Source: Planktothrix agardhii NIES-204 (GTDB taxonomy: Bacteria > Cyanobacteriota > Cyanobacteriia > Cyanobacteriales > Microcoleaceae). Taken from it: a stretch of DNA of 64,000 bases. The stretch spans positions 1 through 64,000 of the forward strand of contig AP017993.1 of NCBI GenBank assembly GCA_003609755.1. Direction: 5' to 3'. The notes beneath the pieces were generated by a model. The model was not told where the DNA came from. It saw only the letters and a program-made list of their open reading frames with translations, and ran no database searches. Made by a program: the position numbers and the translations under genes. Positions 17,213 to 59,002 of this stretch are shown in pieces (position 1 is the stretch's first letter; every line of letters starts with the position of its first letter).

Positions 17213-17292
17213 AATTCGTAACCCTTACGGTGATTGGGATAGAGAATTTATAGCGTCAAATTTGACTAACGTACTGTGATGAATATCATGAG

Positions 17293-32875: not shown

Positions 32876-33063
32876 GTAGAAAGGTTTGAGTAGCAATCGT
32901 ACAGAAACTTACGCTAAGACTAAAATCAATTACAGCATAGGTTTTAGAAGTTGACTTTTCTTAACAAATCTCAATCCGTTTTGTACCAATTCAACTAAGG
33001 TTTAACGGGTACAGTCAAAGCCAAATCCTTAACGGCACTTTCTGCACAGTTGCTACTCAAACC
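32676..33063 (+). repeat. 388-bp direct repeat, copy 1
   Basis: It runs from the middle of the FinO-like gene through ~190 bp of noncoding DNA and matches 38955-39342 in the same orientation (offset 6,279 bp) with only a few changes. The noncoding part (32876-33063) has no gene I recognise. The two copies bracket the restriction-modification cassette. Confidence 0.9.
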
Positions 33064-33065
33064 CC

Positions 33066-34652: not shown

Positions 34653-34653
34653 T

Positions 34654-35529: not shown

Positions 35530-35579
35530 GTCATAAAGAAGTTTAAATGTGTATTAAGTTTATGAAGAAATAAAAAGTT

Positions 35580-36812: not shown

Positions 36813-37054
36813 TTATTTATCTCTTTTTCAAGATCGCTAATAAATTTAATAGGATCAAATGGAAGGGCTTCAGCTATTTTCAAAAATTCGATAACATCGA
36901 GTCTACGTTCACCACTCTCATACTTAGAGACATAAGACTGAGGTTTCCCCAGTTTTTTTGCCAAGGTAATTTGAGTCACCAAAGCCTCGTTTCGATACTG
37001 AATAAGTAGTTTCCGAAATATTTCGTATTCTTTTGTAAAAACTGAAGAACCCAT
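36809..37054 (-). CDS. XRE-family controller protein of the restriction system
   Basis: The protein has 81 residues with a classic helix-turn-helix (TQITLAKKLGKPQSYVSKYE, then SGERRLDVIEFLKIAEAL). The ATG at 37054 has AGGA eight bases upstream, and its TGA overlaps the endonuclease GTG. Restriction controller (C) proteins sit upstream of, and coupled to, the endonuclease in this way, delaying it until methylation is complete. The IS insertion 157 bp upstream may have changed its promoter. Confidence 0.85.
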   Translation of the reverse strand: MGSSVFTKEYEIFRKLLIQYRNEALVTQITLAKKLGKPQSYVSKYESGERRLDVIEFLKIAEALPFDPIKFISDLEKEINK

Positions 37055-37211: not shown

Positions 37212-38517
37212 CAGGACTTACGCAGGCACACTATATATAGTGTGCAGTAAGCCAGCGAACGCTGCCAATTGTTCAAGTATTTGCGCCAGCAATATAAAAT
37301 TTAGACACAAAAATTATGCTGATTGACAGATATTTAACAGTCAATATTTATGCTAAACTGATTAAGTTAATTTGGGGTGAAAAATATGTCGTTTAGCCAA
37401 CTAGATTACTGCCAATATCTATTGAGCAGCCCAAACAATTATACCTTAAATAACTTAGCCAAACACTTAGAAAATGTTAGCCATGATACCATAAATCGTT
37501 ACTTAACCAAAGAAAATTTCACCTCGGAATCTTTGTGGCAAAATGTCAAAAAAGATATCCAAATCAGTGAAAATAGTGCGATCATTTTTGATGATACAGT
37601 ATTAGATAAAAGGTTCGGGGAAAAGATTGAATTAGTCCGTCGTCAATATAGCGGAACAGAACATCGTGTACTGTCAGGTATTGGGCTGGTTAACTGTGTT
37701 TATGTTAATCCAGAACTGGGTTTATTTTGGGTAATTGATTATCGCATATATGATCCAGAATATGATAATAAAACCAAACTAGATCATGTAGCTGATATGT
37801 TGAATAATCTGGTGACAGAAAAACAACTACCCTTCGCAAAAGTCCTTATGGATAGCTGGTATGGGTCACAAAAACTAATGGCAATGATTGAAGAATTAGG
37901 AAAAATTTATTATTGCCCATTGAAAAAGAATCGTTTAGTAGATGACACAGGAGGAAAAGAAAAATACCAATCAATTGAAAAGTTAAACTGGTCTAATACT
38001 GAAGAAAAATCAGGGAAGTTAATCAAAATCAAAAATTTCCCTAAATCTCATAAAGTCAAGCTATTTCGGGTTATTGTTTCTACCAACAGAACGGAATATG
38101 TAGCAACTAATGACTTAACTCAAGCATCCACATTGGATACGAAAAAAACCTGTGCTATTCGCTGGAAAATAGAGGAGTTTCACCGAGAAATTAAGCAGTT
38201 AACTGGGATTGAATCTTGCCAGTGTCGTCAAGCTAGTATTCAAAGAAATCATATTGCTTGTGCCCTTTTAGTTTGGAATCAATTGAAAAGATTAGCTCAT
38301 CTGACAAAGAAAACAGTCTATCAGTTAAAAGCTGAATCTTTGTCCAGTTATTTAATCAAAGAACTGAATTGTCCTTCGATAAAAATGGAACTTGTTTGAT
38401 TCTTTTGGGTTTATTTTTAAATGAATAATCAGGACTTTTTAGGGTGATTGCTATTATCATTGGTATGCGATCGCCTACTTTTAGTACGCTATATATAGCG
38501 TGCTTGCGTAAGTCCTG
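37212..38517 (+). mobile_element. Complete IS (IS4-superfamily, IS701/ISH3-like), 1306 bp, with 5-bp target duplication
   Basis: The terminal inverted repeats CAGGACTTACGCA...TGCGTAAGTCCTG are flanked on both sides by ACAGT (37207-37211 and 38518-38522), a perfect 5-bp target duplication that marks an intact insertion. The left end also contains the perfect palindrome GCACACTATATATAGTGTGC, and the right end a matching CTATATATAG core. Confidence 0.95.
37386..38399 (+). CDS. DDE transposase of the complete IS
   Basis: There are 337 residues from the ATG at 37386, with GGGGTGA as ribosome-binding site; a GTG three codons earlier is less likely. The N-terminal helix domain (SQLDYCQYLLSS, HDTINRYLTKEN) is followed by the catalytic residues: DDTVLDKRFG (first Asp), VLMDSWYGSQKLM (second Asp) and IRWKIEEFHREIKQLTG (Glu in the YREK-type motif). 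It is intact, with complete ends around it, so it is probably active. Similar IS are usually annotated IS701 family in cyanobacteria, while a 5-bp target duplication fits ISH3 better. Confidence 0.93.
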   Translation: MSFSQLDYCQYLLSSPNNYTLNNLAKHLENVSHDTINRYLTKENFTSESLWQNVKKDIQISENSAIIFDDTVLDKRFGEKIELVRRQYSGTEHRVLSGIGLVNCVYVNPELGLFWVIDYRIYDPEYDNKTKLDHVADMLNNLVTEKQLPFAKVLMDSWYGSQKLMAMIEELGKIYYCPLKKNRLVDDTGGKEKYQSIEKLNWSNTEEKSGKLIKIKNFPKSHKVKLFRVIVSTNRTEYVATNDLTQASTLDTKKTCAIRWKIEEFHREIKQLTGIESCQCRQASIQRNHIACALLVWNQLKRLAHLTKKTVYQLKAESLSSYLIKELNCPSIKMELV

Positions 38518-38954: not shown

Positions 38955-39154
38955 GTGATGGCAGAATCTTCACAATAACAGTGAAGCCGAAAATGTTCAA
39001 AAAACTAGAGGAAGCGCAAGCGAATTATCCGCTCTGGGTGGCAGCGATAGCTGGGAAGATGGGAGAAGCTACTCCCGATGGTTTTGTTTTGGCTGACCCC
39101 GCAATTCAAGTGTTTGAGAAAAAACCGCTCATACCCCAAGGAAGCTGTACCTGA
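38955..39154 (+). pseudogene. 5'-truncated FinO-like gene copy
   Basis: The frame encodes DGRIFTITVKPKMFKKLEEA to the end of the family, with Tyr and Leu changes at ANYPLW. It lacks the first ~33 residues of the intact copy. A GTG at 38945 inside the 33-bp repeat could only start a fused product. Confidence 0.85.
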
Positions 39155-39342
39155 GTAGAAAGGTTTGAGTAGCAATCGTACAGAAACTTACGCTAAGACT
39201 AAAATCAATTACAGCATAGGTTTTAGAAGTTGACTTTTCTTAACAAATCTCAATCCGTTTTGTACCAATTCAACTAAGGTTTAACGGGTACAGTCAAAGC
39301 CAAATCCTTAACGGCACTTTCTGCACAGTTGCTACTCAAACC
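38955..39342 (+). repeat. 388-bp direct repeat, copy 2
   Basis: It matches 32676-33063. It contains a 5'-truncated copy of the FinO-like gene and the same ~190-bp noncoding tail. Confidence 0.9.
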
Positions 39343-39432
39343 CGAAATTCAAAATTATGAACAAGCACCTTGAGGGAAAACATAGTCCTAAATCTATCAT
39401 TTTTCTACTTTAGACAAAAATCACCACTGAAC

Positions 39433-42400
39433 TTAATGTGTTTGAATGTCGCTATCTAAACCAAGTTCTTGCAATGCAACTTTTGTTTCTTCAATTTTCT
39501 GTTCTGAAATTTCACCATCCACAACAACCTCAACCTTGAGTTTTAGTTTCAAGTCCTTAGTGGCTGAGAATTTGGATAACACCTTTGTATAAAACTGTGT
39601 CCATTTTTGGGGCGTAACTTCTCCAGACCATTTTAATTGATTGGGTGGCGTTGGTACGACTTTTTTCTCATCCCCATCTGGAGCAGGAGTGTCATTGCTA
39701 GGAACAGTTTCTTTTTCAATGGTGAAACTAACGGTATTAGCGATCGCACCAACCGTAGCATTAACTGTAAAGTTTCCGGTGATTTCGCCCGCAATTAACA
39801 TTCCTTGCGCGTCAATATTGCCGCCTGTGGCTGTCCAGAGGACATTAGCGATCGCAATATTCTGATGACGTTGATCAACTCCTTTGACAGTAAATGTTTG
39901 TCCTTGATTGGGTTTTAGGGTGACATCTGTTGGGGTGATCTCTAAAGTGGTTAGTCGAGATGGATCTTCCTGTTCTTTTTGGTACTTTTCGGCATCTTCA
40001 CCTTTAATCAAATAAATATCATCGGAAATTTCAACGCTGTCAATGTCTAGTGGCGAATCTTTAAAATAAAAGGGTTGATATTTGCTATCAGATGTTTTAC
40101 CAACATAGGCAAAACTGCCCTCTTTTACACCTTTGACGATGGTTTCTTTGATCGCATTACCATTGAGAAGACGAGGCAAGCTAGGTGACGAGAAAAAGAC
40201 ATCACGGACTGCTTTTGTACTCCATTCTTTAAAAACGAGTGACCAGTTACGCACTAAAAAGCGTGGGGTGATCGCATCTTGGAGAATATCCTCTGTTTTA
40301 AGTCGGTTAAGGATAAGTGCTGTAATTGATTTAGAACTATCGGCACTACTAGATGAACCTGCTCCCATGTCAACCGTGCGTAGTTGATTGTCTTTATCTA
40401 GTAAAACAGTATATTTATAGGAACGCCATACGGCTTCTTGAACGTCGCGTTCGGCTTTTTTGAGATTCACACTCAGTTGTTTTTGCTGCACATCATTTAA
40501 TGTATCCCATTCTTGGTCACGAATATTTTCCCAAGCCAACACTTTACGCGCTTCATCTCTGAGTAGGTTTTCCGAGTCAGCGATCGCAAAAATCACGGCA
40601 CTTTTATAGGTACGATCAGATGTACCCGACTCCCGAATCAGCTTTTCTACAAATAGCAATGTGTTAGCATCGCTCATCGGACGCTCAATAGATAATACTG
40701 CCAAAGTTAATTTAGGTACATTGGGAATTTCACTAGATTGTTTAGGAAAATGTCTAACACTAACATCTACACCAGGGACAGAAGGAAAGGCTTTTTTAAT
40801 TTCATTTTCAATCCGCTTACTAATGTCTTCCGTTTGCACACTAGCTAGGCGATCTGCTAAAATCTTATTTAAGTTAGGCGAAAGGCTAAAATGATATTTA
40901 GTGCTTTCAACTATCAGGTAATAACAGTCTGTTTTGAGCGTATCTAAGACTGTTTCCACATCACCAATATTAATACTAGAATCGGCGATCGCTAAACGAA
41001 CTTCGGGTAAGGTTGCTGTTTCACGAACTACACCACCATTTGACTCAAAGAAAATCGTAGTTGCGGCTTTACCATGTAATCTTGCATTTTTAATCGCTTC
41101 AGTTGCTTCGAGATCCAGTCGAAACGCATGGGAGTCTTTTTTGCCACAGATATCGGTTGTCACTGCCGTTTCGAGACGACCTTCACCCATTTGCTCAAAC
41201 ACGGCTGATCGAAATATGGGATCGTTAAGAGGGGCTGTACCTAATGTAATCAGTGCATCTTTGTGGTTGCCTTTGTAACCCTCTTGATAGGCGTGAGATA
41301 CCCAAAGAGCTAGTAAGCGCAGAATACCCCTTGTACGCTGAAATCTGGGCAATGCTGCCCATTTACGTTCAAAGACTGAAATTACAGTAGGATGAAAGGG
41401 ATAGGTGGCGGCAAAGGCTTCACGGGCATTATCAATGGGAAACCAGCTAGGAAGTAAGGAGCGATTTTCCACAGCCCAATCTGCATATTCATTACAGGTA
41501 GCGATCGCTTCTTTAGGTAATATAATTTTACCCTCGGCAGTTACCGCTCGTTCATCCCATTCAAATAACCTTCTGCGAATAATTTCTGAAGCTTCTGCTT
41601 CCGCAGACATGACAACAGCTTTACCAACACGATCTAGCATTTTTTTGAAACGTTGTTCATCAGCTTCATCGGCGGCGGTATATTCCATAACTGAAGCCGG
41701 AATTGAAGCAATCAAAACGATATGATCTTCACCTCTGGCAGTTTCAGAAAGTGCCTGCATAAAGTTATAAAGCCGATCATGATAGCCATATTTGCGATAG
41801 CTAGAAACATAATTAAGGATTTCATCCATCAAAATCAGACAGGGTTTATCTTTAGGTAGAAAAGCCCGAATCACATCCCCCTTGGGTTCAGTAAATTCGG
41901 CATCGTGTTGGGCAACAATTTTAAAAGCTTCCTCACCACCTAACTGAAAGGCGATTTCCCCCCAGGGAGTTTTGCGTAAGGGTGTACCATCATTGCCGCC
42001 GCGACCAGTTAAGGAGTCAAATTCTGTACCAACAAAGACAGCCACATTCGCAGTAGGTAAGGTTTTAATATCTGCTTGGGCAATAATCTTGCGAACACCA
42101 GACCATGATTCTGCGGCCTGTCCATTTTGGGCTAGATGGTAAAGCAGAGCGAGGGCGTGGGTTTTACCACCGCCAAACTGAGTCGCCAGGTTATAGACTG
42201 CATTAGCTTCTGTTTTCACACCGGATAAACGGCGCATTACTTGTCCGGCAAATTCAGCCAGCCAACGGGTGAGATAGGTACGGCTCAAGAATTTTTCCGG
42301 GTCTTGGTAGTCGATGGGGGCGCGATTTTCCCGGACATGATCAAGGTTTACAGCAAATTCCGAAGCATCAAGGGGTCGGTTATTCCGTAAGTCTTCCCGT

Positions 42401-42441
42401 GGGGTAAGTCCTTCAATTTTGTACCAAGGTTTTAGGAGCAT
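39433..42441 (-). CDS. DUF499-type AAA+ ATPase with an Ig-like domain (Hma ATPase subunit)
   Basis: The protein has 1002 residues. LATQFGGGKTHALALLYHLA near 87 is the Walker A of DUF499 ATPases, and CLILMDEILNYVSSY near 200 is the Walker B. VFVGTEFDSL and the following segments also fit. Near 830-908 there is an insert of TTLEITPTDVTLKPNQGQTF, VLWTATGGNIDAQGML and FTVNATVGAI, the beta-sandwich pattern of bacterial Ig-like (Big_2) domains, unusual for a cytoplasmic ATPase. A Lys-rich C-terminal domain follows. DUF499 ATPases are found with DUF1156 methylases and SNF2-type helicases in phage-defence islands. It is the last gene of the 12-kb minus-strand operon. Confidence 0.85.
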   Translation of the reverse strand: MLLKPWYKIEGLTPREDLRNNRPLDASEFAVNLDHVRENRAPIDYQDPEKFLSRTYLTRWLAEFAGQVMRRLSGVKTEANAVYNLATQFGGGKTHALALLYHLAQNGQAAESWSGVRKIIAQADIKTLPTANVAVFVGTEFDSLTGRGGNDGTPLRKTPWGEIAFQLGGEEAFKIVAQHDAEFTEPKGDVIRAFLPKDKPCLILMDEILNYVSSYRKYGYHDRLYNFMQALSETARGEDHIVLIASIPASVMEYTAADEADEQRFKKMLDRVGKAVVMSAEAEASEIIRRRLFEWDERAVTAEGKIILPKEAIATCNEYADWAVENRSLLPSWFPIDNAREAFAATYPFHPTVISVFERKWAALPRFQRTRGILRLLALWVSHAYQEGYKGNHKDALITLGTAPLNDPIFRSAVFEQMGEGRLETAVTTDICGKKDSHAFRLDLEATEAIKNARLHGKAATTIFFESNGGVVRETATLPEVRLAIADSSINIGDVETVLDTLKTDCYYLIVESTKYHFSLSPNLNKILADRLASVQTEDISKRIENEIKKAFPSVPGVDVSVRHFPKQSSEIPNVPKLTLAVLSIERPMSDANTLLFVEKLIRESGTSDRTYKSAVIFAIADSENLLRDEARKVLAWENIRDQEWDTLNDVQQKQLSVNLKKAERDVQEAVWRSYKYTVLLDKDNQLRTVDMGAGSSSSADSSKSITALILNRLKTEDILQDAITPRFLVRNWSLVFKEWSTKAVRDVFFSSPSLPRLLNGNAIKETIVKGVKEGSFAYVGKTSDSKYQPFYFKDSPLDIDSVEISDDIYLIKGEDAEKYQKEQEDPSRLTTLEITPTDVTLKPNQGQTFTVKGVDQRHQNIAIANVLWTATGGNIDAQGMLIAGEITGNFTVNATVGAIANTVSFTIEKETVPSNDTPAPDGDEKKVVPTPPNQLKWSGEVTPQKWTQFYTKVLSKFSATKDLKLKLKVEVVVDGEISEQKIEETKVALQELGLDSDIQTH

Positions 42442-42488
42442 TTGTTTAATCTGGTTTGTTGTTTTTGAATTTAGTTGAATTTAGTTTT

Positions 42489-43091
42489 TTAATGCGCGGG
42501 GATTAATTGTAGGAGAATGCCGAGAATTTTGTCGATATTAGTGATATAGTAGTCGGTGAGATCAATCACTACGGTTTGCTCAGATATTTGCAGAAATTTC
42601 CAGATTTCGCCCGAAGTAACAATGCCATAAATTGTTTTAATATCGTTGTTTTCTTGTTCGTTAAATAATTGGGCGGCTATCATTTCAGCGATACATTGTC
42701 CTAGTCCTGATTTAATATCTTCGTTTTTTGCTTCGACAATGGCAACTACTGGCGCACTAATCATTAGTTGCTGTTTGGATAAACTAATCAAATAATCACA
42801 ATAACCTGATAATCCTTGTTCGGGACTAATGCTAAATTCTGTGCCAGAAAATAAGCTGACGGGAGTAGGTGATCGCCGTCTAAGTTCGAGTAAGGTGGGA
42901 GCAATTAAAAATTCTGATCGCGCTTTTTCAGTATTAATAGCTAGGGCTAAGGGAATATTTTCGGCAAGAATGCGTTTGAGGTCGTCACTGGGAGCGATCG
43001 CTTCGATATGGGCAAATAGATCGATTTTTTCTTCAATTTGCAAGTGAAAGTCTTTTTCTACTTGTCTGAGGGTAAAGTTGCTATAGGGCAT
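42489..43091 (-). CDS. PD-(D/E)XK-type nuclease-like protein of the Hma operon (1)
   Basis: The protein has 200 residues. SGYCDYLISLSKQQ near 100 and VVAIVEAKNEDIKSGLGQCI near 117 give the Asp...Glu-x-Lys nuclease motif with a following helix holding Gln, as in cyanobacterial restriction-like proteins. IYGIVTSGEIWKFLQI is the conserved strand that follows. Its ATG overlaps the upstream Uma2 gene by 11 bp, and the ATPase starts 48 bp after its stop. It could supply DNA cleavage to the system; it is a genome-typical family also found alone. Confidence 0.75.
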   Translation of the reverse strand: MPYSNFTLRQVEKDFHLQIEEKIDLFAHIEAIAPSDDLKRILAENIPLALAINTEKARSEFLIAPTLLELRRRSPTPVSLFSGTEFSISPEQGLSGYCDYLISLSKQQLMISAPVVAIVEAKNEDIKSGLGQCIAEMIAAQLFNEQENNDIKTIYGIVTSGEIWKFLQISEQTVVIDLTDYYITNIDKILGILLQLIPAH

Positions 43092-43686
43092 TGGTTTCGG
43101 ATGGGAAGTTAATATTTTCGTAAATAATTGAGAGGGAAAAGGTTAGGTTTAGGCTGGTGATGTGAATTTCTGGATCGTTTTCTACCAAGTCTGTTGGCTC
43201 GATCGCAAGGGATAAATATTCCCAAGCTAAGTCGCTACGGCGTTGGTAGATCTCGATTCTGGGTCGCTCTGGTGTGATTAGGATATAGGTTTGCAGAGTT
43301 TCGATCAGCATATAGTGTTGCTGTTTGATACCGCGATCGCGGGCTTCGGTGGCAGGTGATAGGACTTCGGCAATTAAGCTAGGATATTGCAAAAAATCAC
43401 GGTTAAAACGATCACGTTCATCGCAGCTAACAACAAGATCTGGATAGTAATATTTCCCAGATTTTGTTGTCACTTTGGCATCACTAACGGCGACTTTGCA
43501 ACCTTTACCGCGCAAGTGGGGAATTAGCAGGGCAGCAAGATTGGCGGAAATTTGGCTATGGGGAATTGTGCCGCCTGTCATGGCGATAATTTTGCCGTTT
43601 TCGTATTCATATTTAGTATCTTGATCGGCTTCCCATACGAGATATTCTGCGGGGGACATGGTGAGTGATTGAAGGTTAGCAATCAT
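43081..43686 (-). CDS. Uma2-family (DUF820) nuclease-like protein of the Hma operon
   Basis: The protein has 201 residues. MSPAEYLVWEAD, KYEYENGKIIAMTGGT and HSQISANLAALL are Uma2 N-terminal signatures. YYPDLVVSCDE (Asp ~79), LIAEVLSPATEARDRGIK (Glu ~103, then the Lys helix) form the PD-(D/E)XK-like core. Uma2 proteins are very common in cyanobacteria and their function is unsettled. Its place between two other nuclease-like genes, with an 11-bp overlap downstream and 7 bp upstream, ties it to the operon. Confidence 0.88.
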   Translation of the reverse strand: MIANLQSLTMSPAEYLVWEADQDTKYEYENGKIIAMTGGTIPHSQISANLAALLIPHLRGKGCKVAVSDAKVTTKSGKYYYPDLVVSCDERDRFNRDFLQYPSLIAEVLSPATEARDRGIKQQHYMLIETLQTYILITPERPRIEIYQRRSDLAWEYLSLAIEPTDLVENDPEIHITSLNLTFSLSIIYENINFPSETNAL

Positions 43687-43693
43687 ATATACC

Positions 43694-44314
43694 TCACGAA
43701 ATTTTGGTAGATAGACGTTTGAGAATGCCTAGCACTTCATACAGTGGGTTTTCACGCGGATCGAGGAGTGAAAACTCGGCAGACCATGCGTATTGAGGCG
43801 GGTTAGATTTTGCCATTTTCAGGAATAAAAAGTTATTCCCATTTGTCACCATGCCGAAGATGGGACGATCTCGGCGGTTAGGGCTGGCATACATATAGGC
43901 AAGGGTCTGGGGAATGGCGGAATATGTGCTGAATTTTAAGCCTTTGGCTTCGATAACAGCGATCCATAATTCGCTATTAAATACCAACACATCTAACCGA
44001 CCGCGTACTGGCTCGCTATTATCTTCTTCGTCAATGATAACAGGATCTTCAGCAGAAATATCAAAGGGGTCTTGATAAAAACCTGCTATGTCTAACAAGG
44101 GCGATAAAACTAGCATTTTTACTAATACTTCGATGGTTTTACGGCGATATAACACTTGTCGCATAAATTGGTTGCGGATGCGATCGCACTTGGCTTTTTC
44201 TTCTTCAGAGAGTGCGATCGGTTCTAGCCATTCCGTAAAGAAGTTGCTATCGGTAGCGACTTGTAGGTTTAATCGTTCTTCTAATTCATAAAGTGTGATT
44301 TCATTGGCTTGCAT
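43694..44314 (-). CDS. PD-(D/E)XK-type nuclease-like protein of the Hma operon (2)
   Basis: The protein has 206 residues. VRGRLDVLVFNSELWIAVIE with AKGLKFS (Asp ~106, Glu-x-Lys ~121-123) is the nuclease motif of the type I restriction N-terminal-like family. PQTLAYMYASPNRRDRPIFG and VTNGNNFLFLKM are the helix and strand that follow. It starts 25 bp after the methylase stop. It has the same fold plan as the protein at 42489 but little sequence in common. Confidence 0.78.
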   Translation of the reverse strand: MQANEITLYELEERLNLQVATDSNFFTEWLEPIALSEEEKAKCDRIRNQFMRQVLYRRKTIEVLVKMLVLSPLLDIAGFYQDPFDISAEDPVIIDEEDNSEPVRGRLDVLVFNSELWIAVIEAKGLKFSTYSAIPQTLAYMYASPNRRDRPIFGMVTNGNNFLFLKMAKSNPPQYAWSAEFSLLDPRENPLYEVLGILKRLSTKIS

Positions 44315-44338
44315 AATCTTTTTTCTCCTATAATAGTT

Positions 44339-47300
44339 CTATAGTCCTAAACCTTTTTTACGCGCTAATAAGCCATCAACCCAGCGTTTTTCGTCAGTAC
44401 CCGCCGGATAAAGGGCTGAAAATGATTGTGCTAGTTGCCAGAATTTAATATCTTTACCAATTGCTTCATCAACTAAAAAGCGTTTGAGTGCTTCACTCCG
44501 TCCAGAGTTAAATAACAGCATTGCTTGATGTACTTTATCGCAAATGGTTTCACCAATACGAGAAATTTTGACTTCCCCATGTTCGTCTTCAGGAAGTTCA
44601 TCAAGTACGCCTATAATAATAAGTTGTTTGTCACCTTTGGCTTTTTTCTTGGGAATATCGGGAATAATGCCTTCCTTACCAAATAGGTAAGCAGCACGTT
44701 CTTTAACAGGTAGCAGTCGGGCTTTGTCGCCTTTAACTTCGACAAGATGAGTAAGGTTTTCCAGATGTGCGCCGAGTCCCTGAGCAATCTTACGGGCGGT
44801 ATCATATTCAAGGCTAAAACCTGTTATTTTTGGTTTTTTGCTAGTGTTTTCGTCATCATCATCATCTTCGCTCCCCTCGCCATCTGGGAGAGGGGCTGGG
44901 GGTGAGGGTTCTCCTGCTGAAAGTGTCCAGAGCCACATGGTGGTTAAACGGGCATCTTCTTCAAAGTTGGAGGTGTCTGCGTCTTTAAAGATGGTGCTGA
45001 GGGCTTCTTGGGAAATGGCTGCCCAGACATATTCGAGATATTCACGCAAGGGGACAATTTCACCGCTTGCTTTTTCAACACTGGAATAACGGGAGAAGAT
45101 TTCCAGGGCGGGGCCTAAACAAGCAAAGATGGCATCAGCACCTACTACGCCTTGTTCGGTGAGGCGTGGCATCCATTCTTTGATCCGTTGGGGGAGTTCT
45201 TGCAAAACATTGCGCCAATCGCCTATTTCATTATTGCTGCGTGGGCGGCAGACTAGGTGAACGGATGAGGCAAGGGCAGCAGAGTTTTGAGAACGTAATC
45301 TACCTGGTCTTTCCGTATCAATTGCCCAAGAGCCAGTAAAAATCCATCCTGCATCAATCATTGCTTGTAGTTGTGCTTCCCATCCTGCTGTGGACTTGTG
45401 AGCAAAAACAATTAACCCGATGCCATTTGGAGCAACAATTCGCCGACCTTCTGCCATTGCTTGCCCCATTGTGCGCTCGAAAAAGGCTTTATCTTTTCCT
45501 TTCATTTCGTCAACAATGCACTCTTCATCTTTTGGTGTAAGTTCATTAGAAAAACTTTTCAAAAGATTTATAGGTAAAGTTCTTTTTAGCCAAACATAGA
45601 AAAAATCTGACAGATCGGCATAAGGAACTGCATCATAGTAAGGTGGATCAGTACAAAAGAATTGAACCGCATCATCAGGGAGATAGTAAAGATTCGTAGC
45701 TGATGTTTGTTCTATTTGGGCATTAGTAAGATATTCTGCACTATTCGCCTTTATTGTGAGTTTTATCCAGTCCAAAGCACCTATCCAATTACCTGAACCA
45801 TCTGCAAAGAGATTACATTCTGGAAACTCCCAGACTATAGGCAAAGCTTGTCTCCCAAATGTATGAGCAATAAATTCTCCTGAATTAGCCCAAATTACAA
45901 GAGATGTTAAATAATCAGCTTGTCTATCAACAGCTAAAGATAAACAAGTTTGAATGGCATTTGCTAATTCTTTATCACTTCCTAATTCTTGAATTTCGTT
46001 ACTACTAAGTTTTTTAACCAGTCTTGTTAGTGTAACTAATGCCAGTAATTGTCTAGGGGTGAATAAATCAGCAAAATTATCCATACCATAATTACGCTGT
46101 GAGAATGCTCTACCTGCACCACTACCTCCTCCCATTGGTGTTGGTTCATTTGGAATCAAATCTAAACTTGTAAATTCTTTTAATGCTAAAACTGCTTTTT
46201 CAGTTGCTTCTAAATCTTGTAAACTTGGCAACCGATAAAATCTTCCCTGTGTACTTGGCTTTAATAACACTACACAAAATAAACGAGCATCATTAGCTCC
46301 ACCTTTTCTTATTTTTAGTTGCCTTCTTGTCGATGCTACAGGAGTAGTAAAACCCGTCACAGGACAAGTAGCCGAACCCCTAGCCACTGTCCCCTTTTCA
46401 ACTTCCTTCTCACTTTTCGGCTCAAAAATCTCCAACAAAGGACGGCGCACCTTGCGCGTTACTCCATCCGCATAAGTCACTTCTAACGTCTCAGTTTGCA
46501 CAATACCCGTATCATCCCTTACCCATCGCAAAGCCTTATTTCTCCCAGCCTTCTTCGCCAACCACAAAGAACGCATCAAAGGCACTTCTACAGGAATCCC
46601 CGTACCATCATCAGGAGCTTCAGAAATAATCGTCCTCGCCCATAAATAAGCAATGGGGGTACTACCATCCTCATCTTTAGGATAAAACTCTGCTAACTCC
46701 TTCTCTGCTTCTTCCTTCACCCATTGTCCCCATTTTCTAACTTCATCAGCTAAAGTTTGCCCATATTTGGGGATATATTCCAAAACTACCTTATTTAACA
46801 ACACCGCCACCGGATTGAGGTCACTCGCAAACGCATCCGCCCCCACTCGTAAAGCCTCTAAGGGTATCGAACCACCACCCGCAAACGGGTCAACCACAAG
46901 GGGGCGCGTCCCCACTTCCCCACCTAACGCTTCATGGGCTGCTTGAGTCAAAGCCCTCGCCGTTTCCAGATAATCAGACTGAGTTGAATTATCCCAATTA
47001 GCAAAATCCGCAATAAAATCTAGCAATAAATAGCGCAAACTGTTTAAATTCTTTGGATTCTGCGGATCTAGTGCATTTTCAGGCTTGGCTAATACCTTCC
47101 ATTTCTTCCAATTTTCTTTTGAACAGCATCCATCTGCGGCTGCTTTCCGAGCAAATTTAGTAATAATTTCTACCGCTTGATCTCGAAATATTTGGGGACA
47201 TAAACTATCAACCGGATCAATCCACAATGAAGCACAAATCACCGCCCGACAAGCTGCTAATGGTCGCCGCGCCCACCATATATGTAGAGTTGAAATATGT

Positions 47301-47389
47301 CCATGTCTAATTGATTTCTCCCGTCTGGCATGGGCAGAAATACGTTTAATAGGTAGGTCAACTTCGATTAGGCGTTTGGGATAGATCAT
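44339..47389 (-). CDS. DUF1156-type DNA methyltransferase (Hma methylase subunit)
   Basis: The protein has 1016 residues. The N-terminus MIYPKRLIEVDLPIKRISAH, then GHISTLHIWWARRPLAACRA, is DUF1156. VVDPFAGGGSIPLEALRVGA near 170 is SAM motif I, and FFCTDPPYYDAVPYADLSDF near 578 the catalytic DPPY motif of amino-methylases (m6A or m4C). VALANPEA-type motifs are not needed for this call. Near 830 a Pro/Gly insert and an Asp run (SPPAPLPDGEGSEDDDDDE) come from a genomic repeat inserted in frame. It should mark self DNA for the helicase-ATPase complex. Confidence 0.9.
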   Translation of the reverse strand: MIYPKRLIEVDLPIKRISAHARREKSIRHGHISTLHIWWARRPLAACRAVICASLWIDPVDSLCPQIFRDQAVEIITKFARKAAADGCCSKENWKKWKVLAKPENALDPQNPKNLNSLRYLLLDFIADFANWDNSTQSDYLETARALTQAAHEALGGEVGTRPLVVDPFAGGGSIPLEALRVGADAFASDLNPVAVLLNKVVLEYIPKYGQTLADEVRKWGQWVKEEAEKELAEFYPKDEDGSTPIAYLWARTIISEAPDDGTGIPVEVPLMRSLWLAKKAGRNKALRWVRDDTGIVQTETLEVTYADGVTRKVRRPLLEIFEPKSEKEVEKGTVARGSATCPVTGFTTPVASTRRQLKIRKGGANDARLFCVVLLKPSTQGRFYRLPSLQDLEATEKAVLALKEFTSLDLIPNEPTPMGGGSGAGRAFSQRNYGMDNFADLFTPRQLLALVTLTRLVKKLSSNEIQELGSDKELANAIQTCLSLAVDRQADYLTSLVIWANSGEFIAHTFGRQALPIVWEFPECNLFADGSGNWIGALDWIKLTIKANSAEYLTNAQIEQTSATNLYYLPDDAVQFFCTDPPYYDAVPYADLSDFFYVWLKRTLPINLLKSFSNELTPKDEECIVDEMKGKDKAFFERTMGQAMAEGRRIVAPNGIGLIVFAHKSTAGWEAQLQAMIDAGWIFTGSWAIDTERPGRLRSQNSAALASSVHLVCRPRSNNEIGDWRNVLQELPQRIKEWMPRLTEQGVVGADAIFACLGPALEIFSRYSSVEKASGEIVPLREYLEYVWAAISQEALSTIFKDADTSNFEEDARLTTMWLWTLSAGEPSPPAPLPDGEGSEDDDDDENTSKKPKITGFSLEYDTARKIAQGLGAHLENLTHLVEVKGDKARLLPVKERAAYLFGKEGIIPDIPKKKAKGDKQLIIIGVLDELPEDEHGEVKISRIGETICDKVHQAMLLFNSGRSEALKRFLVDEAIGKDIKFWQLAQSFSALYPAGTDEKRWVDGLLARKKGLGL
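44871..44914 (-). repeat. GC-rich interspersed repeat inserted in frame in the methylase gene
   Basis: CTCCCCTCGCCATCTGGGAG and the following GAGGGGCTGGGGGTGAGGG are a GC-rich dispersed-repeat type seen in many cyanobacterial genomes, here coding for SPPAPLPDGEG without breaking the frame. A CATCATCATCATC run coding for the Asp tract lies next to it. Confidence 0.65.
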
Positions 47390-47400
47390 GGTTTAGGCGC

Positions 47401-47590
47401 TTATGAATTGGGACTATCCCAAATAGTTTGAATTACATCTAAATTTCTTATCTTGCGAGATTGCCGATATATGAACTGGATAGCCATTATTAAAGGCATG
47501 ATCAAAGGCAATCGACGCATCATAGGCTAATTTTTCTGGACTACGAAAATACCAAACAATGGCATGGGTATCAGCAACAATCGCACTCAT
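47401..47590 (-). pseudogene. VapC (PIN-domain toxin) gene with internal deletion
   Basis: An ATG at 47590, overlapping the VapB-like TGA, starts MSAIVADTHAIVWYFRSPEK, the PIN N-terminus with its first Asp. The frame reaches HISAIS and then breaks. In another frame the tail LDVIQTIWDSPNS runs to a TAA at 47403. About 70 residues with the other acidic residues are missing, so the toxin is dead. Confidence 0.75.
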
Positions 47591-47817
47591 AGATCTGCAA
47601 ATTTCTTATCGAAATTTCCCCACATCTCACGCCTCACTTCTTTGATATCCTCTTCAGTAATATGAATGTCCAAGTCTGCCCACATCCCCTTTAAGCTTTT
47701 TCTAGGACGCTTAACAGAGTTCTTAGATTTCAAGAGCTTGGCATAGCTCAACAATTCCATTTGTTCCTCTACTGACAAGTCTTCTAAGACAGCAACTAAT
47801 GAATCTTTAAGAGTCAT
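47587..47817 (-). CDS. VapB-like antitoxin, orphaned
   Basis: The protein has 76 residues: SLVAVLEDLSVEEQMELLSY and an acidic/basic C-terminus (DIHITEEDIKEVRREMWG). This is the small helical antitoxin type (DUF2281-like) that precedes PIN toxins in cyanobacteria. The ATGA overlap with the broken vapC remains. It sits between the helicase and methylase genes of the defence operon. Confidence 0.7.
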   Translation of the reverse strand: MTLKDSLVAVLEDLSVEEQMELLSYAKLLKSKNSVKRPRKSLKGMWADLDIHITEEDIKEVRREMWGNFDKKFADL

Positions 47818-47857
47818 AATTCGTTAACCTCCGGTAAATTTTTCGCCAAAATAGGCA

Positions 47858-50800
47858 TTAAATATCCTGATTTTTGATATTTAAAACCTGATCGGCATCC
47901 ACCTGGTAATGTTTTACTTTAACAATTGCCTCCCAATCTAGTTTAGCTGGATCTTGAATGGCATGAATCTCTGGCTGTGTAGCACAATTAAACACCACAT
48001 ACAACCAATAATCTTGTTTAAGACGCTCGGCGGTACGGTATTCATTATCACTTAAAGCGACCCGTCCAACCTGAGAGCGCCCTTTAACCTCAATAAACTT
48101 GACTGAGATCGCCGTCTTGGGATCTTCAGGGTGAAGTTGGCGCGAAATCAAGTCAAAACCACGATTTTCAGATTCTACAGTTTCCACTTGCCAACCCTGT
48201 GCTTCTTCATACGAGATCACCGCATTAACGGCAATCCGCTCAATTTCAGCATTACTAACCATTGGTGCAATATCAGGCGCGTGGCGTTCAGGATGAGGTA
48301 ACACCCATGCCCTACCCTTTGGCTCAATGGCAGCAATCATACAGTTACGTTCCTGTGTTAATTCTATCCTGCGCCGATCCAATCTTGTATTTAATTCATC
48401 CAGACGATCTTCAGCTTGTTTCAAACGCCCATCTAAACCCGTTTCTTCTGACCCTGATTCCTTTTTATCAAATAATTCACCATATTGAATCTGTAAGCGA
48501 TCGATAATTGCCAATAAACTAATTTCCGTATGGTCAGAGATTATTTTAATTTCTCGCTCTCTTTCCTGCTGCATTTCTGTTAAAAATCCGTTTAACTCAG
48601 ATTCAATCAAAAACTGTTCAAGCTGTAGACTATCTGGTAAATTAAGATGATCAGGAAATTCACTTGTTTCCGTTGCAGGTATTAAGTCAAGAAAAATCGT
48701 TGGTTGTTTGAGCGATAAAGTTTGGTCTAATTCAGTTTGCACCACATATAAACGCTCATGGAGTTTATTGCCCCGTCCATCTTGAAATACCACCAAATAA
48801 ACATCTAACCTTGCGGGTTGGGTGCGATGCAAGTCATAAAATACCGCGCCATGTTGCAAGTCTTGTTCTGTTTGTTTTAGTACCTCTTTTCGCACACACT
48901 CAAACAGGGGATGTCCTGGTGTCACCCATTCCACCGTAGGATCTAAATCGAGAACTTTTTTATCAAAAGCAATCTGCTTATATTCCCGTCCCAGTTTACC
49001 AAAACGCGATTCTTGATCATCCCCTGTTACCCAAAGATGGCGCGGGATACGTCCAATGCGATAGATTTTGCCCATCTCCCCCCCTCGTCCTTTGGGATTC
49101 GGGTTGGAGGTGATAGCTTTAGGATGAATACCAACAATAGAAGATGCTTCAACAAAGAAATTTTCGACTACTTCAGGCACTAATCGCTTTTCCTTAGCAT
49201 CAGTAGATCTGCCAATCAAATTAGATAAATTTAGTTCGCGTTTTGCTAGTCCCTCTAATGCCGATTTGGTAATTCTGCGAAAATGTTCCGTATCTACCTG
49301 ACTGACAATCCGATCTTTAATTACATCTTCGGTGAGATTACGAGCATACATCTCCCTGAGCATTTTTTCAATTTGATTTGCTGGAAAAACATCGCCTAAA
49401 ACATTGAAAACTTTGCCCGTATTTTCAGGATCAAGATCAGCCTCAATTTTTTGAAGACGTTCAAATAGTTTCCAAAATACGCTCCCTTCACGGGTATTTG
49501 TAGAAACAAAATTAAAAATCAAACAGTCTTTTTCCTGTCCATAACGATGAATCCTGCCCATCCGTTGTTCTAAACGAACAGGATTCCAAGGAATGTCATA
49601 GTTAATCATTAGCCAGCAAAACTGAAGGTTAATCCCCTCACCCGCCGCTTCCGTTGCTACTAATACTTGACAATCTTCTTTAAACTCACGCTCGGCATAA
49701 ATGCGGGTATTAGGGGTATTGCGATCGCCTATATTCATCCCTCCATGAATTTGGGTAACACTCAAACCCCACTGTTTAAGCTTGCCTAGAGGACGTTCAT
49801 TTTTACCATCACCTGCTAAAAAGTCAAGGGTATCCTTATGTTCAGTAAAAATCAGCAGCTTCATTTTGGGATCGTTAAAAAAGCCTTTTTCTACCAATAA
49901 CTGCTTCAGTCGTTGTAATTTTGATTCAATTTCACGATGTTCTAAATCTTTCGCTAATTTAATCAGCTTATTAAGTATTCTGATTTCATCTTGTAAGGCA
50001 ATCGGATCAATATTGGCTACTACATTTTCGAGATCACCTAAAATCTTTTCTTGAGCTTCTTCCGTTAGTTCGTCAAAATCATCAGGTAATTTCCGTTCAA
50101 TTAATTCCTGACGGTATGCTGCTGGATTTTCGAGGATATACTTACGCTTTTCACACATCCGTTCCAGACTGCGGCGTACAGCATAAACACTTGAGGCAAA
50201 ACGTCTCTGTAACATAGCCATCGTAAACCCTAAAGCCCGTCCACGATTTGAGTCATCCATTGCTGCCTTAATTGACTGATCTTCAACATAGCGTGTCAAT
50301 TCATCATAAAAATCTAGCTCATCGTTATTAATTTGAAAATCGGCAGTTTGGACAATGCGACGAGTAAAAAGCTTTTTTACTTCTCCAGTTTCCGGGTCAG
50401 GAAATGTGACCAGTGCTTCCTTAGTTCGACGTAGATAGAAAGGAGCATGATTACGTTTCATCGCCTCTTCTAAGCTGCTTACATCCCCATAAACATCACG
50501 ATCCAGTAAGGCTAAAAACAAACAAAAGTTTTTCGGATCGCCCTTGTGGGGGGTAGCAGTCATCAGTAAATAGTGATCGGTCATTTCTGACAACTTCTCA
50601 CCGAGTTGATAAGCCAGTGTTTTTTGATCAGAACTATAGGCACTCATCTTATGGGCTTCATCAACAATGATTAAATCCCAATGGCTACGCAACAGGCTTT
50701 CCTTAGCATCATCAACCCGCGAAATCCAAGAAACTGAAGTAACAATTTGATTTTTATCCTGCCAAGGATTTGCACCATAATTAGCACGGAGAATATCACC

Positions 50801-51340
50801 GCGCACTACTTCAAAATCTTCACGAAACTTGTCTTTCATTTCGCGTTGCCACTGAAATGTCAGGTTTGCAGGTGTAACAATCAGGACGCGCTTAACTAAT
50901 CCTCTAGCCTTCAATTCTTTAAGTAGTAAACCTGCCATAATCGTTTTACCCGCACCTGGATCATCGGCCAATAAAAAACGGATTCGCGGTTGCTTCAAAA
51001 AATAGTCGTAAACGGCTTCAAGTTGGTGGGGTAGGGGATCAACTCGTGCAACGGTAAGGGCGAAAAATGGATCGTATTCATAAGCTAAACCTAAGCGCAT
51101 TGCCTCAATCCCATAGCGAAACTTCTGGGCATCGCCATCAAAGGGTTCTTGTTCTGGGGTAGCTTCAAGCTGGGCAATCTGTTCAGAGGTTAAGAATGGT
51201 TGGTGTACTTGATTTGTATTAATTCCTTGCCCAAACAGTTTGACTCCATCCATCATCGGTTGGACAGTTATCACTTTTACTGGTTCAGAGAAGATCGAAC
51301 CGCGAATGATCATACCTTGCTTCAGTTGTTCTGGTTTCAC
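47858..51340 (-). CDS. SNF2-like helicase with C-terminal DUF3883 domain (Hma helicase subunit)
   Basis: There are 1160 residues from a GTG at 51340; the conserved MKPEQLKQGMIIRG start supports it over the ATG at codon 10. FLLADDPGAGKTIMAGLLL near 130 is motif I, DLIIVDEAHKM near 230 motif II, LLMTATPHKGD motif III, and EQRMGRIHRYGQEKD near 597 motif VI of SNF2/superfamily 2. About 400 residues later comes ENRGFDLISRQL, then ISVKFIEVKGRSQVG, a DUF3883-type domain that resembles PD-(D/E)XK folds (Asp...Glu-x-Lys). It is first in the operon and should translocate on invading DNA. Confidence 0.9.
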   Translation of the reverse strand: MKPEQLKQGMIIRGSIFSEPVKVITVQPMMDGVKLFGQGINTNQVHQPFLTSEQIAQLEATPEQEPFDGDAQKFRYGIEAMRLGLAYEYDPFFALTVARVDPLPHQLEAVYDYFLKQPRIRFLLADDPGAGKTIMAGLLLKELKARGLVKRVLIVTPANLTFQWQREMKDKFREDFEVVRGDILRANYGANPWQDKNQIVTSVSWISRVDDAKESLLRSHWDLIIVDEAHKMSAYSSDQKTLAYQLGEKLSEMTDHYLLMTATPHKGDPKNFCLFLALLDRDVYGDVSSLEEAMKRNHAPFYLRRTKEALVTFPDPETGEVKKLFTRRIVQTADFQINNDELDFYDELTRYVEDQSIKAAMDDSNRGRALGFTMAMLQRRFASSVYAVRRSLERMCEKRKYILENPAAYRQELIERKLPDDFDELTEEAQEKILGDLENVVANIDPIALQDEIRILNKLIKLAKDLEHREIESKLQRLKQLLVEKGFFNDPKMKLLIFTEHKDTLDFLAGDGKNERPLGKLKQWGLSVTQIHGGMNIGDRNTPNTRIYAEREFKEDCQVLVATEAAGEGINLQFCWLMINYDIPWNPVRLEQRMGRIHRYGQEKDCLIFNFVSTNTREGSVFWKLFERLQKIEADLDPENTGKVFNVLGDVFPANQIEKMLREMYARNLTEDVIKDRIVSQVDTEHFRRITKSALEGLAKRELNLSNLIGRSTDAKEKRLVPEVVENFFVEASSIVGIHPKAITSNPNPKGRGGEMGKIYRIGRIPRHLWVTGDDQESRFGKLGREYKQIAFDKKVLDLDPTVEWVTPGHPLFECVRKEVLKQTEQDLQHGAVFYDLHRTQPARLDVYLVVFQDGRGNKLHERLYVVQTELDQTLSLKQPTIFLDLIPATETSEFPDHLNLPDSLQLEQFLIESELNGFLTEMQQEREREIKIISDHTEISLLAIIDRLQIQYGELFDKKESGSEETGLDGRLKQAEDRLDELNTRLDRRRIELTQERNCMIAAIEPKGRAWVLPHPERHAPDIAPMVSNAEIERIAVNAVISYEEAQGWQVETVESENRGFDLISRQLHPEDPKTAISVKFIEVKGRSQVGRVALSDNEYRTAERLKQDYWLYVVFNCATQPEIHAIQDPAKLDWEAIVKVKHYQVDADQVLNIKNQDI

Positions 51341-52351: not shown

Positions 52352-52441
52352 GAATAGCAATTGAATCAATATGTCTGGACTCGTTTGGATTATTCACTGA
52401 AACCAGATAAGCAACCCGCAATGATGAATGTAAAAAATGAA

Positions 52442-53179
52442 CTTCATTGTGTGTAACTTTTGCACGAAACCATATTGATTTTTTAAGCCACTTGCAAAGG
52501 CACTACCCACGCCCTAACAATCCTCTTAACGGGTATGGGTGCTTATATGAAAGTAAACAGACACGGGAAAGCCAAAATACTCAGCCATGATGAAATCCAG
52601 ATCCTATTTAATGAAGGTTTGCACAACCTCAGAGATCGGGTAATTTTTGCTGTCTGTCTCTTCACCGCCGTTAGAATCAATGAAGCTGTTACTCTCTACA
52701 CGGCTGATGTCTACGACAAGAGGGGACGGGTTAGGGATGAATTAACCTTTAGGAAATCCAATACAAAAAGGAAACTGGCAACCCGCACGATTCCGGTGCT
52801 AGATGAACTCAGGGGATATTTAGAGAAGTACAAACCAGAGGCGGGTAAAATTTGGCTGTTCCCCGGTGGAACCTTTCGAGATGACCAAAACCACCATATC
52901 ACCTCTGACTCAGGCGCACGGATTTTAAGGAAGGCTTTTGAACAGACTGGCATTGATGGAGCCAGTAGCCATAGTATGAGACGGACGGCCCTAACCCAAA
53001 TGTCTAACGCTGGAATTCCCCTCAGAACCATTCAGGAAATATCCGGCCATCGCAACCTTGAACAACTACAGCAATATTTAGAAGTGCAGCCGGAACAGGT
53101 CAGGGGAGCTATCGCCGCTTTATCTATGCTGTCTCCTGTTAATAACGCAAGAGACGGAAAATTCTTATATCCCGACACA
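52442..53179 (+). repeat. Long direct repeat, copy 2 (integrase and leader)
   Basis: It is the partner of 17293-18030, in the same orientation. It includes 93 bp of leader and almost the whole integrase gene. Confidence 0.92.
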
Positions 53180-53206
53180 CCCCATAATAAAACCCCTATC
53201 CTCTAA
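52535..53206 (+). CDS. Short tyrosine recombinase/integrase, copy 2
   Basis: The protein has 223 residues, identical to the copy at 17386 for about 200 residues (Arg47, His146-x-x-Arg149, His172, Tyr181 all kept). Only the last ~20 residues diverge (NNARDGKFLYPDTPHNKTPIL). A good terminator follows. The near lack of differences, even at third positions, points to recent duplication or gene conversion. Confidence 0.92.
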   Translation: MGAYMKVNRHGKAKILSHDEIQILFNEGLHNLRDRVIFAVCLFTAVRINEAVTLYTADVYDKRGRVRDELTFRKSNTKRKLATRTIPVLDELRGYLEKYKPEAGKIWLFPGGTFRDDQNHHITSDSGARILRKAFEQTGIDGASSHSMRRTALTQMSNAGIPLRTIQEISGHRNLEQLQQYLEVQPEQVRGAIAALSMLSPVNNARDGKFLYPDTPHNKTPIL

Positions 53207-58025: not shown

Positions 58026-58026
58026 T

Positions 58027-58112
58027 ACTCATAATTGATAATTGACAATTGATAATTAATAATTGATAATTGATAGTTGACAATTGATAATTGATAATTG
58101 ATAATTGAATTT
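58027..58112. repeat. AATTGATAATT-type repeat block, upstream of Uma2
   Basis: AATTGATAATT and AATTGACAATT units repeat about eight times. A similar block (with TTGTCAATTATCAATTATT) lies at 58736-58776, so both sides of the Uma2 gene carry the same AT-rich self-complementary repeat. Confidence 0.8.
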
Positions 58113-58129
58113 TAGGATTAGGGAGAATT

Positions 58130-58992: not shown

Positions 58993-59002
58993 GGTTTTGC
59001 TC

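What the first reader, a model, noticed from the sequence alone, without database searches (positions are those of the whole stretch)
39433..51340. Hma-type defence operon carrying three consecutive embedded nuclease-like genes
The minus-strand genes run helicase (DEAH, DUF3883-like end), VapB remnant pair, DUF1156-type methylase, three PD-(D/E)XK-type proteins in a row (43694-44314, 43081-43686 Uma2, 42489-43091) and DUF499-type ATPase. Helicase-methylase-ATPase is the core named Hma and related to DISARM. The nucleases overlap or nearly abut the core genes, so they look like functional parts rather than chance neighbours. A single system using three different nuclease-like subunits would be unusual.
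Basis: partly seen in the sequence, partly recalled or inferred. Interest (0 to 1): 0.75.

Follow-up and report, generated by a model that had tools for sequence, protein, structure and literature searches.

The report
Defence operon with exchangeable nuclease cargo
A cyanobacterial anti-phage operon of a known kind (Hma) carries three small nuclease-like genes in a slot where related operons carry other genes, so they look like exchangeable extra weapons rather than fixed parts of the machine.

Summary
In detail: an Hma triad (HmaA helicase 47858-51340, HmaB methylase 44339-47389, HmaC ATPase 39433-42441) with three intact nuclease-like genes between HmaB and HmaC (HsdR_N-like, Uma2, PD-(D/E)XK). 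The genome is a Planktothrix, by kinship label the same species as PCC 7821. The trio is no fixed part of Hma: it occurs in 1 of 63 HmaB-HmaC junctions of related loci (PCC 7821) and on two P. agardhii plasmids, with decayed copies on two more. The nearest relative outside Planktothrix (Nostoc desertorum) has another gene there, an unnamed ~190-aa family seen only at Hma. The junction is a cargo slot: 47 of 63 hold at least one ORF, among them TA, Schlafen, GmrSD and TIR genes. All three families are widespread outside Hma, where HsdR-like genes also abut unrelated genes, so tight spacing proves little. Yet such genes are enriched in cyanobacterial Hma spacers (14 of 21 mid-sized ORFs against 3 of 103 in arbitrary regions), and the trio is under purifying selection. 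Best reading: exchangeable auxiliary nucleases riding in a Type-1 BREX-related (Hma) operon, a published theme. By-products: the 190-aa family, and strain-variable recognition segments in HmaB.

The parts
47858..51340 (-). HmaA: SNF2/DEAD helicase with C-terminal NOV_C (PD-(D/E)XK-type) domain, motif D1063...E1084-V-K1086
   Evidence: PADLOC HmaA 1.1e-186, Pfam NOV_C 3.8e-20; motif read
47587..47817 (-). VapB-like antitoxin ORF (76 aa), cargo of the HmaA-HmaB spacer
   Evidence: weak DUF2281 hit, 0.0072, under cut-off; a gene annotated as hypothetical in the same place in L188 and L189, beside VapC/PIN pieces
47414..47590 (-). shortened VapC-like frame, about 58 codons
   Evidence: three-frame reading (end computed from 58 codons plus stop); annotated as a 177-nt VapC in L188 and as two PIN pieces in L189
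44339..47389 (-). HmaB: DUF1156 N6-adenine methyltransferase; segment aa ~277-705 differs between strains
   Evidence: strain comparison
43694..44314 (-). HsdR_N-like PD-(D/E)XK protein (206 aa), cargo 1
   Evidence: Pfam HSDR_N 1.2e-6; homologous to cargo 3 by hhalign, probability 95.4, E 1.7e-8
43081..43686 (-). Uma2 (DUF820) family protein (201 aa), cargo 2
   Evidence: Pfam Uma2 1.4e-34; PDB 9y1l match 4.4e-4
42489..43091 (-). PD-(D/E)XK protein (200 aa), cargo 3
   Evidence: PADLOC PD_DExK 5e-52; no Pfam hit; model pLDDT 86.5 matching BpuSI, DrdV and HsdR nuclease domains
39433..42441 (-). HmaC: DUF499 AAA+ ATPase
   Evidence: PADLOC HmaC 4e-117, Pfam DUF499 2.1e-24

Best explanation
A working-looking Hma (DUF499-centred, Type-1 BREX-related) restriction-like operon whose HmaB-HmaC junction is a cargo slot. 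In the Planktothrix agardhii/rubescens lineage the slot holds three co-directional PD-(D/E)XK-type genes (HsdR_N-like, Uma2, PD_DExK). Most likely mechanism: HmaB methylates self DNA, HmaC and HmaA (helicase plus its own C-terminal nuclease) attack unmethylated phage DNA, and the three small nucleases, expressed with the operon, act as separate auxiliary or backup effectors, not as obligate subunits. Shown: identity, intact motifs, purifying selection, exchangeability of the slot, enrichment of such genes in Hma spacers. Inferred: co-transcription, nuclease activity, and an anti-phage role for the trio.
For: Triad by profile. HmaA nuclease motif intact; 36 of 37 HmaA ORFs over 1000 aa in the loci keep a D..EVK pattern. 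Trio in 1 of 63 junctions; 47 of 63 junctions hold at least one same-strand mechanical ORF of 75 aa or more. Ten cargo ORFs that I chose are MNT+HepT, PIN, AlbA_2 Schlafen, GmrSD, DarT+macro, AAA_21, TIR and DUF3368 (the DarT+macro pair is in L178, which is outside the 63). Intact locus with trio on NIVA-CYA126/8 p3 and No.976 p4; P. pseudagardhii No.713 p1 has the 190-aa gene there instead. HmaC tree: the trio rows sit in a set whose next member has the 190-aa gene (support 100). Families widespread outside Hma: at least 406 PD and 306 HsdR-like matches, each in 88 of 386 genomes, copies at Hma included; 98 Uma2 matches in the own genome. Enrichment: 14 genes of the three families in 97.1 kb of Hma spacer against 15 in 335.8 kb of flank and 7 in 800 kb of arbitrary regions; 14 of 21, 12 of 69 and 3 of 103 ORFs of 180-260 aa. 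Purifying selection: cargo 3 against the L087 homologue dS 1.78, dN 0.096. PMC12839542 describes embedded auxiliary nucleases in Type-1 BR loci.
Against: No activity, expression or phage data. On PCC 7805 p1 and No.365 p1 the rest of Hma is gone but for an HmaB stub, while Uma2 and cargo 3 stay intact, so they may do something unrelated to Hma. The enrichment could reflect a general liking of these families for defence islands: flanks are also enriched over arbitrary regions (p 2e-4). The family HMMs for that test were home-made and seeded with window proteins; the control regions were picked by me at round coordinates in 18 genomes; genes in one row (L062, L071) are not independent.
Confidence: 0.6

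Rival explanations
1. The three genes are passengers or self-spreading nuclease genes that settled in a tolerant junction and have no defence role there.
For: All three families are dispersed and many-copy in cyanobacteria; HsdR-like genes lie 3-6 nt from an unrelated gene in 6 of 10 loci and stand in tandem in L101 and L105; three Uma2 genes in a row sit in another Hma locus (L062); Uma2 and cargo 3 outlive the loss of Hma on two plasmids; a DUF559 domain has even landed inside HmaB of PCC 7821.
Against: Enrichment in Hma spacers over flanks of the same loci (14 of 21 against 12 of 69, p 4e-5; without PCC 7821 10 of 17 against 11 of 67, p 9e-4); 13 of the 14 spacer genes run with the operon, L054 being the exception; other checked cargo of the slot is typical defence or TA cargo.
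Confidence: 0.25
2. The three proteins are true subunits of this Hma: a multi-nuclease effector assembled on HmaA-HmaB-HmaC.
For: Tight packing with an 11-nt overlap; 0 nonsynonymous differences between the window and PCC 7821 in each of the three genes; in the own genome the only copies of the PD and HsdR-like genes are these.
Against: Absent from 62 of 63 junctions; each family occurs in places without Hma; HmaA has its own nuclease domain; the slot content differs within the genus.
Confidence: 0.08
3. The trio replaces the ~190-aa gene that relatives carry in the same place and took over its job, for example as the nuclease or regulator of the ATPase.
Against: No sequence relation to the trio (hhalign); the fold match is under the tool's own caution level and Foldseek ranks acetyl-CoA carboxylase and formamidases first; L108, close kin too, has neither; on the HmaC tree the 190-aa gene is as scattered as shuffled labels (12 changes, shuffled mean 12.3).
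Confidence: 0.07

Closest known systems
Hma system (PADLOC; PMC8565338), also called Type-1 DUF499-centred BREX-related (BR) system (PMC12839542)
   Same: SNF2 helicase with C-terminal PD-(D/E)XK, DUF1156 N6-methyltransferase and DUF499 ATPase in one operon
   Different: Carries three small nuclease-type genes between HmaB and HmaC; PMC12839542 reports standalone nucleases in such loci in general terms and does not mention Uma2 in its main text
Auxiliary and backup nuclease effectors of BREX/BR loci (PMC12839542, section 35)
   Same: Standalone PD-(D/E)XK genes embedded among core genes
   Different: Here three in a row (two related to each other, one Uma2), lineage-specific, in a slot whose content differs within one genus
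Uma2/DUF820 family and PADLOC PD_DExK family
   Same: Sequence and motif, fold for the PD protein
   Different: Their copies are widely dispersed and mostly not tied to Hma (only the loci fetched were checked for context)

Membership tests
Hma / Type-1 BR | HmaA SNF2 helicase | tested here: met
   PADLOC HmaA 1.1e-186
Hma / Type-1 BR | HmaB methyltransferase with DUF1156 | tested here: met
   HmaB 2e-123, DUF1156 6.6e-21
Hma / Type-1 BR | HmaC DUF499 ATPase | tested here: met
   HmaC 4e-117, DUF499 2.1e-24
Hma / Type-1 BR | C-terminal active PD-(D/E)XK on the helicase (79% of Type-1 BR taxa by PMC12839542) | tested here: met
   NOV_C 3.8e-20; D1063..E1084-V-K1086; activity itself not tested
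Hma / Type-1 BR | anti-phage activity | not testable with these tools
   needs phage assay
DISARM | DrmA-DrmB(-DrmC) core (recalled) | tested here: not met
   All seven ORFs of the operon and two neighbours scanned with PADLOC: the helicase is best as HmaA, with DrmD and DrmA as weaker helicase matches; no DrmB or DrmC in the rows shown (for the helicase 25 of 65). The rest of the window was not scanned
BREX | PglZ plus BrxC and other BREX core genes | tested here: not met
   No PglZ in the rows shown for the nine proteins scanned; BrxC only 0.0015 on HmaC. The rest of the window was not scanned
PD-(D/E)XK superfamily (42489 protein) | fold and D..ExK motif | tested here: met
   [not shown]
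PD-(D/E)XK superfamily (43694 protein) | HSDR_N profile and D..ExK motif | tested here: met
   Pfam HSDR_N over its cut-off; D108, E122, K124 each in 25 of 26
Uma2 (43081 protein) | Uma2 profile and conserved acidic residues and lysine | tested here: met
   1.4e-34; D83 47/49, E107 47/49, K121 42/49
Obligate Hma component (trio) | present at the junction in other Hma loci | tested here: not met
   1 of 63 junctions
Hma-bound gene (~190-aa family) | single copy and only at Hma | tested here: met
   19 of 19 genomes known to have it have one copy, the one at Hma, one of them split in two adjacent pieces; in 386 cyanobacterial genomes 3 confident hits, all at HmaC, and one weak hit with stops. 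It is present in only 20 of 79 loci, so linked but not obligate
PD-(D/E)XK superfamily (~190-aa family) | restriction-endonuclease-like fold | tested here: inconclusive
   [not shown]

The most novel reading that the evidence does not exclude
The HmaB-HmaC junction is a dedicated effector slot of Hma. Its most recurrent occupant is an unnamed ~190-aa protein, seen only at Hma and spread from cyanobacteria to methanogens (invariant D..ExE, possibly a BamHI-like nuclease; the BamHI residues are recalled). In Planktothrix it was swapped for a three-nuclease cassette that does the same job, while strains exchange the recognition segment of HmaB to change specificity.
Probability: 0.2. Interest if true: 0.62.

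Novelty: new variant of a known kind. Interest (0 to 1): 0.42.

Why it matters
It shows that an Hma operon can change its small nuclease or toxin modules between the core genes, and that counting neighbours inside an operon as subunits misleads when the slot is a cargo hotspot. The comparison also picks out a gene that is tied to Hma (the ~190-aa family, no convincing Pfam, NCBIfam or PADLOC match; PHROGs not scanned) and natural allele sets of HmaB with different recognition segments, both directly testable.

Tried and rejected
Trio as a separate mobile cassette: on PCC 7805 p1 and No.365 p1 the trio stands without Hma, but an HmaB stub (aa 674-714) sits right next to the shortened HsdR-like gene, so this is a decayed Hma locus, not a free cassette. 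Extra ~200 aa in HmaB of PCC 7821 as an intein: it holds a DUF559 domain (3.8e-34) between SPSP..GEG repeat peptides. Trio related to the 190-aa family: no (hhalign). Trio as stand-in for a lost HmaA nuclease: HmaA motif intact. Promoter and terminator scan: fewer promoter-like sites than in shuffles (16 against a mean of 26.9), uninformative; one 10-of-12 site lies at 42535-42506 before HmaC. PDB sequence search with the 190-aa profile and with the six-row profile of cargo 1 and 3 found nothing. Among the papers listed by searches (20 of 32; 6 of 6; 7 of 7; 12 of 413; 2 of 2; 12 of 115) I saw none whose title or shown abstract start is on Hma in Planktothrix or on Uma2 genes in Hma; search 81 (11 of 11), on recognition-domain exchange, listed BREX/PglX and other restriction or defence papers; search 103 (5 of 5), on the BamHI active site, listed nothing of use.

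Papers: PMC12839542 was seen as passages, section 29 whole and section 35 part 1 of 2; PMC8565338 as passages; PMC1913061 as one passage; all others as search listings only.

Counting notes: of 79 loci, 16 lacked HmaB or HmaC by my criteria and were left out of the 63. There the trio families were recognised by phmmer with the window proteins (E up to 1e-3), so remote Uma2 genes may be missed. In some searches, 4 of the 55 loci L032-L086 were left out beforehand (L045, L055 and L073 short or partial, L083 overlapping L052) and one more fell out for showing fewer than two core genes, leaving 50. Match counts are lower bounds, because at most 8 candidates per genome were scored. PCC 7821 is both G255/L071 and L107 and is one strain. 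Several phylum loci are the same contigs as loci (for example L067 and L116), so the two samples overlap. 44 of the 81 tree rows were in no labelled group.
Full report
What is there. On the minus strand, 51340 to 39433, lie HmaA (helicase, C-terminal NOV_C), a VapB-like ORF with a shortened VapC-like frame, HmaB (DUF1156), an HsdR_N-like protein, a Uma2 protein, a PD_DExK protein and HmaC (DUF499).

They are not a fixed part of Hma. A scan of one genome per species with an HmaC alignment gave 79 loci from cyanobacteria, other bacterial phyla and archaea. In 63 both HmaB and HmaC can be read; HmaB precedes HmaC in all 63 (in more distant Hma groups of the phylum sample, such as L035, L048 and L056, the order is HmaC before HmaB). 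The trio is in one of the 63, PCC 7821. 47 of 63 junctions hold at least one same-strand mechanical ORF of 75 aa or more; 11 have a gap of at most 150 nt. Ten cargo ORFs that I chose for a Pfam check were MNT and HepT (L142), PIN (L115), AlbA_2 Schlafen (L143), GmrSD (L136), DarT and macro domain (L178, not among the 63), AAA_21 (L176), TIR (L177) and DUF3368 (L119). In the phylum sample single members of the three families sit in other Hma spacers: a PD gene (L035), an HsdR-like gene (L051), Uma2 genes (L050, L054, L056, L058, L072), and three Uma2 genes in a row (L062).

History within Planktothrix. Complete loci with the trio are on NIVA-CYA126/8 plasmid p3 and No.976 plasmid p4 as well as on the PCC 7821 chromosome. 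PCC 7805 p1 and No.365 p1 keep Uma2 and the PD gene at 99.5% protein identity, a shortened HsdR-like gene and an HmaB stub: decayed loci. P. pseudagardhii No.713 p1 has an Hma operon with the ~190-aa gene in the slot. In PCC 7821 the HmaA-HmaB spacer holds a 220-aa PD-type gene (50 bits to cargo 3; no Pfam hit) where the window has VapB and the VapC-like frame. In the HmaC tree (quick method) the two trio rows group with L113 (Nostoc desertorum), which has the ~190-aa gene (support 100), and then with the two Chlorogloea loci, one with the gene and one with an empty junction.

Abutment is weak evidence. The PD and HsdR-like families have at least 406 and 306 matches, each in 88 of 386 cyanobacterial genomes, copies at Hma included; the own genome has 98 Uma2 matches, although it holds only this one copy each of the PD and HsdR-like genes. 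Of 20 loci fetched around PD or HsdR-like hits, none shows both families; in 6 of the 10 HsdR-like loci the gene lies 3-6 nt from a gene that I read as a cysteine desulfurase (by eye). PD homologues 84-86% identical occur in G193 and G282, which are not among the 49 genomes with an HmaB hit at 1e-30.

But chance alone is excluded. In 50 Hma loci of the phylum sample, 97.1 kb of spacer hold 14 genes of the three families, 335.8 kb of flank hold 15, and 800 kb of arbitrary regions (40 stretches at round coordinates in 18 genomes, each with an HmaB hit) hold 7 (spacer against arbitrary p 1.7e-9; without PCC 7821 10 in 94.5 kb, p 1.7e-6; flank against arbitrary p 2e-4; spacer against flank p 0.0026). 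Among ORFs of 180-260 aa the shares are 14 of 21, 12 of 69 and 3 of 103. The profiles were home-made from window proteins, genes in one row are not independent, and the flanks are richer than arbitrary regions themselves, so part of the effect is habitat.

Mechanism. The published account of Type-1 BR (Hma) systems has the methyltransferase mark self DNA, the ATPase scan, and the helicase-nuclease restrict; further nucleases inside the locus are read as auxiliary or backup effectors (PMC12839542). The window fits: HmaA keeps its own PD-(D/E)XK motif, as do 36 of 37 long HmaA ORFs of the relatives. I therefore take the trio as auxiliary effectors in an exchangeable slot (0.6), with passengers (0.25), subunits (0.08) and a direct replacement of the ~190-aa protein's job (0.07) as rivals.

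Two by-products. First, a ~190-aa family without a convincing Pfam, PADLOC or NCBIfam match (stray single hits down to 0.0018) sits directly before HmaC in the 18 loci first found (distance -58 to 122 nt), and is in 20 of 79 by six-frame profile search. It is single copy in 19 of 19 genomes chosen because they have it, and in 386 cyanobacterial genomes its 3 confident hits are all at HmaC (a fourth, weak hit has stops). D75, E93 and E95 are invariant in 18 of 18 rows. Its model is confident (pLDDT 86.7) but its fold match is not decisive. Against a core role: on the HmaC tree its presence is as scattered as shuffled labels (12 changes, shuffled mean 12.3). Second, HmaB of four Planktothrix strains agrees at 88-100% in most 40-residue blocks of residues 1-236 and 706-1016 (one block, 81-116, at 66-77%), but from about residue 317 in NIVA-CYA126/8 and 237 in No.976 up to about 705 the larger blocks drop to 17-75% identity with the window, and in PCC 7821 to 40-97%, while HmaA and HmaC stay at 96.3-99.5% DNA identity. 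The segment spans the stretch between the DPFAGGGS and DPPY motifs and beyond, which fits the inserted target-recognition domain that PMC12839542 describes for these methylases, so recognition-segment exchange is likely but not shown.

Noticed in passing
L113:5380-5943, L109:3813-4376 and 18 further loci; L190:5136-5720: Unnamed ~190-aa family at the HmaB-HmaC junction, directly upstream of HmaC, across cyanobacteria, Chloroflexota, Acidobacteriota, Planctomycetota, Verrucomicrobiota, Myxococcota, Thermodesulfobacteriota and Methanothrix; seen only at Hma; no convincing Pfam, NCBIfam or PADLOC match; invariant D..ExE.
   Followed up: partly
44339-47389 (HmaB aa ~277-705) against L071, L188, L189: The central segment of HmaB differs strongly between Planktothrix strains while HmaA and HmaC are nearly identical: likely exchange of target recognition.
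   Followed up: partly
L071:8499-12122: HmaB of PCC 7821 holds an in-frame ~200-aa insert with a DUF559 (Vsr-like, recalled) domain flanked by SPSP..GEG repeat peptides; a similar DUF559 gene with such repeats lies between HmaB and HmaC in L044:10898-11458.
   Followed up: partly
G000 contig C3, about 75-86 kb (L083, L052): A second, more distant Hma operon on the same contig (HmaB 37% identical over its match) without ORFs between HmaB and HmaC and with a HigBA-like pair between HmaA and HmaB (the pair read by eye).
   Followed up: no
L062:5532-7369: Three consecutive Uma2 genes between HmaC and HmaB in another cyanobacterium: an independent row of three nuclease-type cargo genes.
   Followed up: partly
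L178:936-2599 and L184: DarT and macro-domain (DarTG-like) pair next to HmaC; Pfam checked on L178, the L184 genes are by similarity to L178 only.
   Followed up: no
L032, L033, L035, L048, L054, L056, L080, L081, L085: A 142-150-aa protein (DUF7680) recurs between HmaB and HmaC in a more distant Hma group; Pfam was checked on the L032 copy only.
   Followed up: no
33834-37054: Two Dam-like methylase ORFs (read by eye), an ORF with a weak Mrr_cat hit (0.0056, under cut-off) and an HTH gene: a likely separate restriction-modification set beside Hma.
   Followed up: no
56061-62729: A type I restriction-modification set (R-, S- and M-like ORFs) with a second Uma2 gene at 58130-58741, next to a transposase-like ORF at 54861-55976 (read by eye, apart from Uma2).
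   Followed up: no
17288-18033 and 52437-53182; 30690-31501 and 37212-38517; 32676-33064 and 38955-39343: Repeated mobile-element pieces: near-identical integrase copies in direct orientation (99.2%), transposase pieces in inverse orientation (99-100%), FinO-like gene copies (98.7%); names read by eye or from the Planktothrix records.
   Followed up: no
[not shown]
   Followed up: no
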